Assembly: GCA_949288265.1 (NCBI GenBank)
Contig: CASEJM010000009.1
Location: 1-40,463, forward strand
Source of the DNA: an uncultured Pseudomonadota bacterium
Lineage (GTDB): Bacteria > Pseudomonadota > Alphaproteobacteria > Rs-D84
Length of the DNA: 40,463 bases
Reading direction: 5' to 3'
Under the pieces are notes generated by a model that was not told where the DNA came from, made no database searches, and saw only the letters and a program-made list of their open reading frames with translations. Position 1 is the first letter of the stretch; each line of letters starts with the position of its first letter. The translations under genes and the position numbers were made by a program. Positions 1,377 through 28,112 of the stretch are shown in pieces.

Positions 1377-1404
1377 ATTATACACAGTTTTTTTATAAAC
1401 GCAA
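1377..1404 (-). promoter_or_regulatory. Promoter of tig
   Basis: On the minus strand, TTGCGT (1399-1404) and a perfect TATAAT (1377-1382) are separated by 16 bases. Predicted transcription starts near 1370, just upstream of the AGGGGA ribosome binding site of tig. Found by eye only. Confidence 0.6.
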
Positions 1405-1440
1405 TAATAAGTTTGTCGGACATGATGTCTTTTTATTTAC

Positions 1441-1469
1441 TTGTGTTTATTTTGTAGTGAGTATATAAT
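1441..1469 (+). promoter_or_regulatory. Promoter of the structured leader RNA
   Basis: TTGTGT (1441-1446), a 17-base spacer and a perfect TATAAT (1464-1469) predict a start near 1476, about 240 bases upstream of the next plus-strand gene. It is divergent from the tig promoter 37 bases away. The first transcribed bases immediately form a hairpin (1478-1484 with 1490-1496). Confidence 0.6.
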
Positions 1470-1475
1470 GTTTGC

Positions 1476-1690
1476 TGTCAACAGGTATTCTGTTGATGGG
1501 GTGTGGAAACCTCGATGATAGCGTCGTGGTGTTAATTATGGCGCGTGGTTGCGCTGTTTTTATTATTACGATGAAACATAAACTCCTGATTTTTGTGTCA
1601 GGAGGGCCGCGAAATATTAAAAATACGCGACACAATTCTATCAATTGTTTCCAACCTCCTGACCACCAAGTGTTTTGGTGGTTTTTTCGT
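1476..1690 (+). ncRNA. Structured 5' leader or small RNA, unknown class
   Basis: Between the promoter and the gene at 1719 lies a run of hairpins: 1478-1484/1490-1496 (7 bp), 1498-1502/1509-1513, 1513-1516/1523-1526, 1541-1544/1551-1554 followed by a T-rich stretch, and 1583-1589/1598-1604 (7 bp). The segment 1598-1605 can alternatively pair with 1655-1662 (8 bp), enclosing two small hairpins (1608-1611/1626-1629 and 1632-1637/1643-1648). A terminator hairpin follows at 1662-1687. No known riboswitch, SRP, 6S or tmRNA signature was recognised. It may be a cis-acting leader of the secreted protein gene or a free small RNA ending at 1687. Confidence 0.45.
1662..1687 (+). terminator. Intrinsic terminator ahead of the secreted protein gene
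   Basis: An 8-bp stem (ACCACCAA 1662-1669 with TTGGTGGT 1675-1682) and a 5-base loop are followed directly by a T run. It lies between the leader and the ribosome binding site at 1706-1710, so it either ends a small RNA or acts as an attenuator. Confidence 0.7.
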
Positions 1691-1718
1691 ACGAAAAATA
1701 AAAACAGGAGATTGAAAT

Positions 1719-2342
1719 ATGATCAGTATAACAAAAATGATTTGCGGGACTGTATTCATTACGGTAGTAACCGCAAATATATGCAATGCCGCGGTTCAGT
1801 GTGGCATGGAAGTTTCAACGCAACCTAGCGGATATACAACGATTTCTCTGAATGTTGCTGATAATTGTTCGTCAACTAATCAGATATATTTCTGTGACCC
1901 AAACAGCAAACGATGTGATTTTGTTACCAGATGTAACACTTGCTCTAATTCAGGATGGACTATAAGTTATGATACTTATATTGATGGCACTGTGTGTACC
2001 GATATACCTATTACACAGTGTTGTAAAACTTACCCGGGACCGTCCGTTGGTACGTGGACAATAAATTCGTCAAATCGTGCATATCAATACAGACGAATCA
2101 AAAATTACAAATGTGATGGGACATATACTACAACAAATGAATATAGATGTGCGGCTGGATATTATGGTGATGCTAAAGGGACATCGCTTACCAATTTGAC
2201 GGGGTGCGTTCAATGTCCATCAGGTGGGACATCGGTGGCTGGTTCAACAGTAATAACATCTTGCTATTTACCATCTTGGACAACAGGCTCTGATTCCACC
2301 GGTAGTTACATATACACATCAGATTGTTATTACAATAATTAA
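1719..2342 (+). CDS. Secreted cysteine-rich protein, unknown function
   Basis: The 207-residue product begins with a signal peptide (hydrophobic residues about 7-24, likely cut after CNAA), so it should be exported by Sec. The mature part is rich in Cys, Thr, Ser and Tyr, with a CAAGYYGD element and a C-terminal region of CxxCPSGG form. These resemble the motifs in the proteins at 20638 and 28251. The many cysteines suggest disulfide-stabilised folding outside the cytoplasm. AGGAG lies 8 bases before the ATG. The gene stands alone between a leader RNA with a terminator and a bidirectional terminator, so it is likely its own transcription unit. Function is not recognised; surface or adhesin-like protein is only inference. 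Confidence 0.75.
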   Translation: MISITKMICGTVFITVVTANICNAAVQCGMEVSTQPSGYTTISLNVADNCSSTNQIYFCDPNSKRCDFVTRCNTCSNSGWTISYDTYIDGTVCTDIPITQCCKTYPGPSVGTWTINSSNRAYQYRRIKNYKCDGTYTTTNEYRCAAGYYGDAKGTSLTNLTGCVQCPSGGTSVAGSTVITSCYLPSWTTGSDSTGSYIYTSDCYYNN

Positions 2343-27754: not shown

Positions 27755-27781
27755 AAAGTCCCCCAGACGGGGGATTTTTTT
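27755..27781. terminator. Bidirectional terminator between dnaK and rnpB
   Basis: TCCCCC (27759-27764) pairs with GGGGGA (27769-27774) over AGAC, with an A run before and a T run after, ending dnaK on one strand and RNase P RNA on the other. Confidence 0.9.
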
Positions 27782-27783
27782 GT

Positions 27784-28112
27784 GACAGATGAATGATAAG
27801 CCGGATTCTGTCCTGCCCCAGTTCAGTTTTATTAACCAATCTGAGGTAGTGAGCATAATCAATCTGCATCAAGTGTTACCACAAGATGTCAAGCCCTCTA
27901 CCCGTCCCCATGCGTGGGACTCGTTTCGGGGACCTATTTGAGGTTGCTGCGCATAGAGATTGCCCGTTTCACCCGATGTTTTTCAATCGATTCGTCACTG
28001 TTGCTCTAATCGTCGGATTGCTCCGCTCGGTCGTTAGCCGATATGCTGTCCCATGCAGTCCGGACTTTCCTCTGTCATATAAATTATGACAGCTATGCTC
28101 TATTCATCTGTT
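27784..28112 (-). ncRNA. rnpB: RNase P RNA, bacterial class A
   Basis: This is the catalytic RNA that matures tRNA 5' ends. On the minus strand the 5' part carries GAGGAAAGTCCGGACTGCA (conserved region I), the middle has AGAGCAACAGTGACG and GGTGAAACGGGCAATCTC, and the 3' part has GACAGAATCCGGCTTAT (conserved region V), which pairs with region I. ACAGATGAAT at the 5' end and ATTCATCTGT at the 3' end (27785-27794 and 28102-28111 on the plus strand) form helix P1 and set the ends at about 28112 and 27784. The protein-like reading frame at 27886-28089 is a shadow of this RNA. Confidence 0.96.

What the first reader, a model, noticed from the sequence alone, without database searches (positions are those of the whole stretch)
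1476..1721. Four-segment CTCCTG/CAGGAG switch in the leader of a secreted protein gene
Segments A (CTCCTGA 1583-1589), B (TCAGGAGG 1598-1605), C (CCTCCTGA 1655-1662) and D (CAGGAG 1705-1710, the ribosome binding site of the gene at 1719) are mutually complementary. A:B (7 bp) leaves C free to pair with D (6 bp) and hide the ribosome binding site; B:C (8 bp) frees D. A terminator hairpin (1662-1687) sits inside the C:D loop. This is attenuator-type logic with no known riboswitch class recognised. The signal that would choose between states is unknown.
Basis: partly seen in the sequence, partly recalled or inferred. Interest (0 to 1): 0.8.

Follow-up and report, generated by a model that had tools for sequence, protein, structure and literature searches.

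The report
Phage-immunity RNA rebuilt as gene switch
In front of a gene for a predicted secreted protein lies a ~210-base RNA element, one of many copies in a genus of uncultured, mostly gut-derived bacteria, whose pairing plan matches the C4 immunity RNA of phage P1 and which likely decides, by forming or breaking a terminator, whether transcription runs on into the gene.

Summary
Segments A, B, C and the terminator are real and conserved. The C:D (ribosome-site) pairing is not supported. Window 1477-1687 is one of 134 full copies compared (of 163 unique matches); DNA searches found the element in one genus only. Nearly all copies have a promoter-like site, hairpin P1, hairpin P2 with loop a1, segment b1, hairpin A:B, a three-stem core closed by B:C that carries b' and a', and an intrinsic terminator; most precede signal-peptide, cysteine-rich genes. 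a1:a' and b1:b' fit their own partner better than swapped ones in 134 of 134; A, B and C change together in variant copies. Order and spacing match phage P1 immI (a1-b1-C4); the core matches Rfam sRNA-Xcc1 weakly, below cut-off. Unlike 30 sRNA-Xcc1 loci, these copies show no copy-specific a2/b2 target at the gene; they have hairpin A and a terminator whose 5' arm overlaps C, so B:C would be an antiterminator. Best reading: a C4-type antisense module turned into a cis transcription attenuator. The terminated fold is the predicted ground state; what selects readthrough is unknown and untested.

The parts
1441..1469 (+). promoter-like site: TTGTGT, 17 nt, TATAAT (1464-1469), ending 7 nt before hairpin P1
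   Evidence: 128 of 133 copies score 8 of 12 or more at this place (shuffled 36%), -10 to P1 median 6 nt
1477..1497 (+). hairpin P1 at the predicted 5' end of the RNA
   Evidence: 95.7% of cells paired, 7 of 7 pairs with double changes
1498..1513 (+). hairpin P2 (GGGGT/ACCTC) whose loop carries a1 (1504-1510 TGGAAAC)
   Evidence: 86.8% of P2 cells paired, own stem 75 better/37 worse of 134; weak match to c4-a1b1 RF03163 at 1465-1517
1517..1521 (+). b1 (GATAG), partner of b' in the P6 loop
   Evidence: own better than median swap in 134 of 134 copies; run of 5 or more pairs in 133 of 134
1522..1570 (+). variable hairpin P3; inner hairpin 1538-1557 plus T-run resembles the terminator t1 that follows b1 in phage P1
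   Evidence: t1-like in 76 of 133 copies (shuffled 1.8%), 10 of 30 sRNA-Xcc1 loci (shuffled 5.6%), and in P1
1583..1589 (+). segment A (CTCCTGA), pairs with B
1597..1605 (+). segment B (GTCAGGAGG), pairs with A or with C
1608..1629 (+). hairpin P5 with conserved A/U-rich internal loop
1632..1648 (+). hairpin P6, loop 1638-1642 (CTATC) = b'
   Evidence: 95.6% of cells paired
1647..1653 (+). a' (GTTTCCA), partner of a1
   Evidence: own better than median swap in 134 of 134 copies; 97.9% of cells paired
1655..1663 (+). segment C (CCTCCTGAC), closes the C4-like core with B and overlaps the terminator's 5' arm
1662..1687 (+). intrinsic terminator t2: stem 1662-1669/1675-1682, T-run 1682-1687
   Evidence: terminator after C in 129 of 133 copies versus 1 of 30 sRNA-Xcc1 loci
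1705..1710 (+). D (CAGGAG): Shine-Dalgarno site; no copy-specific pairing with C, a' or b'
1719..2342 (+). gene behind the leader: 207-aa cysteine-rich protein with signal-peptide-like start, no Pfam match at E<=1

Best explanation
The element is a leader RNA built on the plan of the phage C4 antisense-RNA system (targets a1 and b1, then a core carrying b' and a') which likely works as a transcription attenuator of the gene behind it. SHOWN by sequence and covariation: a1:a', b1:b', A:B, B:C and the terminator stem; A:B and B:C exclude each other; the 3' strand of B:C overlaps the terminator's 5' arm; no copy-specific a2/b2 signal at the gene; copies within a genome almost never share a full a/b code. 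PREDICTED by folding: the ground state is a1:a' + b1:b' + A:B + terminator, so most transcripts should stop at ~210 nt; forming B:C (the C4 fold) breaks the terminator base and would let RNA polymerase run on. INFERRED: anything that frees a'/b' from a1/b1, most simply a second RNA from the same locus (as short IsrK RNA does on its own readthrough mRNA), would favour B:C and readthrough, giving a private self-activating switch. The trigger is not known.
For: Own-versus-swapped pairing, 134 copies: a1:a' 134/134, b1:b' 134/134, P1 134/134, terminator stem 120 better/3 worse. In 17 variant copies with a changed C, own A:B beats both cross-group medians in 15 and own B:C in 17. 57-copy alignment: 390 and 394 double-change cells versus 122 in shuffles; slid controls 34-56% paired versus 91-92%. 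Folding of 132 of 134 copies: MFE has A:B in 130, terminator in 126, B:C in 1; the C arm overlaps the terminator arm by 3-5 nt in 120; forcing B:C keeps a median 0% of the terminator's pairs. P1 immI record: promoter, a1, b1 (both marked putative there), C4 with gaps of 31/7/66 nt against 34/6/75 in the window; RF01695 and c4-a1b1 match P1 there over cut-off. Window 1596-1672 alone folds into the same three-stem shape as P1 C4. Terminator after C 129/133 versus 1/30; hairpin A 129/133 (shuffled 7%) versus 10/30 (shuffled 27%). Gene start under 60 nt after the T-run in 122 of 127, which leaves little room for a second promoter. 1 of 421 within-genome copy pairs shares both a and b. IsrK precedent: PMC4825925 abstract and passages.
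Against: No transcript, end-mapping or probing data exist here. B:C costs a median 12 kcal/mol more than the ground state in a nested model, so readthrough would need help that I cannot name; the model cannot score B:C together with a1:a' and b1:b', and slipped terminators were not counted (60% of the stem stays in the window copy). The terminator could be a fixed end with constant leak. Pairing tests do not correct for relatedness; two of five measures hardly exceed shuffles (pairs with double change 29 versus 25.6, 24 of 500; pair types 89 versus 84.4, 38 of 500). The Rfam ties are weak: sRNA-Xcc1 appears in 3 of 20 loci scanned at E<=5, c4-a1b1 reaches no cut-off in 35 relatives and at E<=0.1 rings in 6 of 14 control genomes. 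20 of 20 sRNA-Xcc1 loci scanned do not match RF01695 at E<=0.1. The 1/421 equals a permutation mean of 1.02, so private codes may be drift. A second, divergent subfamily of the genus keeps a weak downstream signal (a'b' 20 better/7 worse of 27; a':D 38/20 and b':D 38/21 of 59), so loss of the target is shown for the window's type only.
Confidence: 0.6

Rival explanations
1. The element is mainly a small-RNA gene: the terminated C4-like RNA acts in trans on other mRNAs, the terminator is its fixed end, and the gene behind lives on constant leak.
For: C4 acts on target mRNAs after processing, and the A. baumannii Group 1 RNAs are proposed to (PMC5320573 passages); own promoter-like site and terminator in nearly all copies.
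Against: Each copy's a'/b' fits its own a1/b1 and codes are almost never shared within a genome; copies sit just ahead of genes of one kind, 115 of 127 with a signal-peptide-like start versus 67 of 416 control ORFs. Trans targets were not searched genome-wide.
Confidence: 0.18
2. Termination-provoking antisense control of the phage P4 CI type: the released core RNA binds a1/b1 of new transcripts of the same locus in trans and makes them terminate, a negative loop.
For: Same kind of parts; a CI-like role in termination is raised for the RNA behind IsrK in PMC4825925 (passage), the P4 scheme itself is recalled. a1/b1 is kept in 134 of 134 copies although a2/b2 is not seen.
Against: In the nested model cis pairing of a1/b1 already goes with the terminated state, so a trans partner taking a1/b1 would relieve it (inference).
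Confidence: 0.13
3. One reading: C pairs with the ribosome site D when A:B forms.
For: C and D are complementary in the window.
Against: No copy-specific C:D fit: 62 better, 54 worse of 127; several variant copies with C = CCTCCAACC keep AGGAG-type sites all the same (listing); the terminator is predicted to end most transcripts before D.
Confidence: 0.05
4. A small-molecule riboswitch of unknown class, with the conserved P5 loop as binding site.
For: P5 loop GAAUA...AAUAA is largely conserved in 57 aligned copies; terminator switch.
Against: The same core plan is an antisense RNA in phage P1 and goes with targets at the gene in 30 sRNA-Xcc1 loci; no Rfam riboswitch match.
Confidence: 0.04

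Closest known systems
C4 antisense RNA of phages P1/P7 (Rfam RF01695, with targets c4-a1b1 RF03163)
   Same: Order promoter - 5' hairpin - a1 in a hairpin loop - b1 - (t1) - three-stem core with b' in a loop and a' beside the closing stem; near-equal spacing.
   Different: RF01695 does not match; no copy-specific a2/b2 at the gene; extra hairpin A and terminator t2; genes of a predicted secreted kind instead of icd/ant.
sRNA-Xcc1 (Rfam RF02221)
   Same: The core B...C matches its model below cut-off (window 30.4 bits; L071 42.5 bits, E 1.9e-6), with B:C as its closing stem. It also lies ahead of a gene: symE in Xanthomonas integron cassettes (PMC12444791 passages).
   Different: Cut-off 53 bits not reached; 30 loci over it have a1/b1 and a2/b2 and, but for 1, no terminator right after C.
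IsrK of Salmonella prophage Gifsy-1 (RF01394)
   Same: Leader with own terminator, short and readthrough forms, self-pairing (PMC4825925 abstract and passages); the isrK model matches P1's a1-b1-t1 at 35.1 bits, below its cut-off of 50.
   Different: IsrK ends at the terminator before the core; the effect shown is on translation of an antirepressor operon.
A. baumannii Group 1 C4-like sRNAs
   Same: Many C4-like copies with differing a' in one genome (PMC5320573 passages).
   Different: Proposed there as processed sRNAs acting on phage or bacterial transcripts; the passages seen describe no terminator-coupled gene leader.

Membership tests
C4 antisense RNA (RF01695) | match to the Rfam model at its cut-off | tested here: not met
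   No RF01695 match in window 1400-1760 even at E<=10; 0 of 35 relatives over cut-off.
C4 antisense RNA (RF01695) | three-stem core, closing stem formed by its ends, b' in a loop, a' before the 3' strand | tested here: met
   Folds; B:C 99.6%, P6 95.6% of cells paired in 57 copies.
C4 antisense RNA (RF01695) | upstream targets a1/b1 complementary to a'/b' | tested here: met
   134 of 134 copies for each by the swap test, though in L143 b1 and b' no longer match (run 4); order as in the P1 record.
C4 antisense RNA (RF01695) | downstream targets a2/b2 at the ribosome site of the regulated gene | tested here: not met
   a'b' versus downstream 61 better, 71 worse of 134; the same test finds it in 27 of 30 sRNA-Xcc1 loci.
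C4 antisense RNA (RF01695) | 5' end made by RNase P at a GG(W) on the 5' strand of the closing stem | not testable with these tools
   Cleavage cannot be tested. GGTC is present at the start of B in 88 of 134 copies; the window has TGTC. The rule is from PMC5320573 passages.
C4 antisense RNA (RF01695) | phage or prophage antirepressor operon | tested here: not met
   Window neighbours look like trigger factor, ribosomal-protein and argS genes (names from recall, ORFs); genes behind copies are of secreted kind.
sRNA-Xcc1 (RF02221) | match at its cut-off of 53 bits | tested here: not met
   Window 30.4 bits and not listed in the own-genome search at E<=1; 2 of 96 genus genomes have a match over the cut-off.
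Intrinsic transcription attenuator | terminator and a competing antiterminator in the leader | tested here: met
   Overlap of C and terminator arm by 3-5 nt in 120 of 132; forcing B:C removes a median 100% of the terminator's pairs. Met as sequence logic; activity not tested.
Riboswitch | known aptamer class | tested here: not met
   No riboswitch family at cut-off in the window nor at E<=10 in 1400-1760.

The most novel reading that the evidence does not exclude
A genus of gut bacteria has turned a phage immunity RNA into a bank of privately coded, self-recognising switches: 16 window-type copies plus further divergent ones in one ~1 Mb genome, each gating one surface or secreted protein through its own a/b code, so that single surface genes can be flipped independently by RNA alone.
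Probability: 0.35. Interest if true: 0.85.

Novelty: new variant of a known kind. Interest (0 to 1): 0.66.

Why it matters
If true, an RNA made for phage lysogeny became a genome-wide cis-regulatory device in cellular genes, with the antisense target lost and a terminator gained. It offers over a hundred natural variants with matched compensatory changes, so that the pairing code, the A/B/C competition and the terminator can be tested together. It also suggests that sRNA-Xcc1, filed as a Xanthomonas sRNA, is a C4-type RNA.

Tried and rejected
C:D, a':D and b':D pairing: tested, no signal in the window's type. Known riboswitch: none. Recalled candidates 6S RNA and permuted tmRNA: no Rfam match. 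FourU, RyhB, CRISPR-DR7 and similar weak hits: judged chance; none is in the list for 20 other loci. Selection for orthogonal codes: not supported (observed 1, permutation mean 1.02). A pattern search for another such start site in the own genome gave 0 and was too narrow to mean much. Pfam of ten proteins from behind copies: eight without a match, one OmpA-like barrel, one PKD domain. Not done: R-scape, a covariance model of the family, a genome-wide search for trans targets, Pfam scans of the genes behind the sRNA-Xcc1 loci (their antirepressor look is by eye and recall), protein structure prediction.

Rows dropped: 29 of 163 unique matches (partial or under 60 bits) before the 134; L070 and L073 before the variant test; 2 copies that did not parse and 1 each; for the 57-copy alignment L070 and L143 were barred from the choice of 60 diverse copies and three of the 60 (second copies on L140, L177, L186) were left out. 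L143 is the one copy whose b1 and b' do not match, so that choice favours b1:b' slightly. My notes hold three slips that this report replaces: promoter coordinates off by one (entry 1), spacings (entry 8), and 'all' for the record titles (entry 5).

Full report
Observation. The leader folds far better than shuffles (-81.1 against -53.95 +/- 4.14 kcal/mol). It is no isolated oddity: a DNA search of the own genome and 58 relatives found copies in 22 of 59 genomes (own included), all among the 35 of the same genus, with 5 in the own genome; in a class-wide draw 3 of 289 genomes matched (own included), again all of that genus. An exact core pattern in the GTDB collection gave 69 stretches, 66 of them titled Alphaproteobacteria bacterium (many from guts of deer, sheep and other mammals), and one each titled Prevotella, Rickettsiales and just 'bacterium'. 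No tool gave the genus a name.

The family. nhmmer on these loci gave 182 matches, 163 unique; 136 are full by model coverage and 134 of those score 60 bits or more. The counts below use these 134 unless said otherwise. Nearly all show, in order: hairpin P1, hairpin P2, segment b1, hairpin P3 of variable length, A, B, hairpin P5, hairpin P6, segment a', C, terminator, Shine-Dalgarno site, gene; exceptions are L070, which lacks most of B, and L177's second copy, whose A is short. A promoter-like site ends a median 6 nt before P1 (128 of 133 copies score at least 8 of 12, shuffled 36%).

Covariation. For each pairing I compared the duplex energy of a copy's own partners with that of partners swapped among copies. 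a1:a', b1:b' and P1 are better than the median swap in 134 of 134; the terminator stem in 120 (3 worse); P2 in 75 (37 worse); P6 in 25 (4 worse, mostly invariant). A:B and B:C are nearly invariant in the main group, so the overall swap test says little there (18 better/20 worse and 19/28 of 133). In 17 variant copies where C has changed, own A:B beats both cross-group medians in 15 and own B:C in 17: the three segments change together. On a 57-copy alignment the structure with A:B pairs 91.0% of cells (shuffled 75.4%) with 390 double-change cells (shuffled 121.5), while the numbers of pairs with a double change (29 against 25.6) and of pair types (89 against 84.4) exceed shuffles only slightly; with B:C it is 91.8%, 394 cells and 30 against 25.2 pairs; sliding the partners drops pairing to 34-56%. 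b1:b' is the least paired of the long-range helices there (83.7%, gappy columns). These tests do not remove shared ancestry.

What it resembles. Two Rfam matches below cut-off lie in the window in this order: c4-a1b1 at 1465-1517 (20.1 of 46.7 bits, E 0.007) and sRNA-Xcc1 at 1597-1671 (30.4 of 53 bits, E 0.0017). Taken alone they are weak: c4-a1b1 at E<=0.1 also rings in 6 of 14 control genomes, and sRNA-Xcc1 appears in 3 of 20 further loci scanned (L071 42.5 bits, L075 40.1, L028 37.4). Each of these covers B to C with B:C as closing stem. The phage P1 record annotates promoter, a1 and b1 (as putative), C4, a2, b2 and icd in one line, and Rfam finds C4 and c4-a1b1 there over cut-off. The gaps -10 to a1, a1 to b1 and b1 to C4 are 31, 7 and 66 nt in P1 and 34, 6 and 75 nt in the window. 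The cores fold alike. Thirty loci over the sRNA-Xcc1 cut-off, one from each of 30 of the 39 such genomes among 398 Pseudomonadota, have the same plan: their a'b' stretch fits its own upstream in 30 of 30 and its own downstream in 27 of 30. Several are followed by genes that look to me like phage antirepressors (recall, not searched). Against a simple equation of the two families, 20 of 20 of these loci scanned do not match RF01695 at E<=0.1. One search for papers holding both names gave one paper, whose passages list them apart.

What is different. In the genus the same test finds the upstream fit in 134 of 134 and no downstream fit (61 better, 71 worse): the a2/b2 targets through which C4 acts are not seen. 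In their place stand a terminator directly after C (129 of 133, shuffled 0.8%; against 1 of 30 sRNA-Xcc1 loci and not in P1) and hairpin A before B (129 of 133, shuffled 7%; against 10 of 30, shuffled 27%). So I do not file the element as a member of RF01695 or RF02221; I call it C4-type by plan.

How it likely works. In the predicted ground state of 132 parsed copies A:B is present in 130, the terminator in 126 and B:C in 1. C's 3' end overlaps the 5' arm of the terminator by 3-5 nt in 120 of 132 (3 in the window by that count), and forcing B:C leaves a median 0% of the terminator's pairs (60% in the window copy, all in 1 copy); slipped stems were not counted. Hence B:C is a predicted antiterminator and A:B the anti-antiterminator. 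The gene begins under 60 nt after the T-run in 122 of 127 copies, so it is most likely read from the leader's promoter. The step from ground state to readthrough is inferred. The one precedent I read (abstract and passages) is IsrK, whose short terminated RNA binds its own readthrough mRNA in trans and turns on its translation (PMC4825925).

What it controls. 127 of 134 copies have an open frame within reach; 115 of 127 begin like signal peptides by a simple hydropathy rule against 67 of 416 other frames of 150 aa or more, and cysteine makes up a mean 6.7% (119 complete proteins) against 2.1%. Of 11 such proteins scanned, 9 have no Pfam match.

A second subfamily. RF02221 at E<=0.01 matches 53 of 96 genus genomes, 2 over cut-off, with 0 of 14 control genomes. 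Of 29 such loci read, 27 after dropping two near-duplicates, 26 have an A:B run of at least 6 and 23 a terminator after C (no shuffled control run), and 27 of 27 fit their own upstream; their sequence differs strongly from the window's type. With 40 more loci (69, less 5 of the window's type and 2 near-duplicates), 59 of 62 have a gene, 43 of 59 signal-peptide-like. Here a weak copy-specific fit to the gene start remains (20 better/7 worse of 27; a':D 38/20, b':D 38/21 of 59). One locus over cut-off, L193, precedes a Rha-like gene (19.7 bits, below Pfam's cut-off). Phage-type and gene-switch types thus seem to coexist in the genus, which fits domestication, though the direction is not shown.

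Verdict. The window holds one copy of a large family of C4-type leader RNAs rebuilt with a terminator. Mechanism and trigger await experiment.

Noticed in passing
L088-L117: Thirty loci over the sRNA-Xcc1 (RF02221) cut-off have the a1/b1 - core - a2/b2 plan of phage P1 immI; sRNA-Xcc1 looks like a C4-type RNA although the 20 of these loci that were scanned do not match RF01695.
   Followed up: partly
L195-L221 and L086: A second, strongly divergent subfamily in the same genus with the same A/B/C/terminator logic, mostly before signal-peptide genes; weak a2-like signal left.
   Followed up: partly
L193: C4-type locus over the RF02221 cut-off before a Rha-like gene, in the same genus.
   Followed up: partly
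L072:1164-1360: A copy in which A runs straight into the terminator: B to C is missing, as if deleted between the repeats A and C.
   Followed up: no
L143: The only one of 134 copies with a b1:b' run under 5 (b1 CTTTGG, b' CGTAAG); it shares its a and b' with L187 of the same genome.
   Followed up: partly
L085 (own genome): Divergent copy with a decayed terminator; no gene of the usual kind was seen right behind it.
   Followed up: no
window 27781-28111 (-): RNase P RNA gene, class A; RNase P is the enzyme that matures phage C4.
   Followed up: no
L157: Partial copy on a contig filed under Prevotella, probably mis-binned.
   Followed up: no
window 1538-1557: Terminator-like hairpin inside P3, at the place of terminator t1 in phage P1.
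   Followed up: partly
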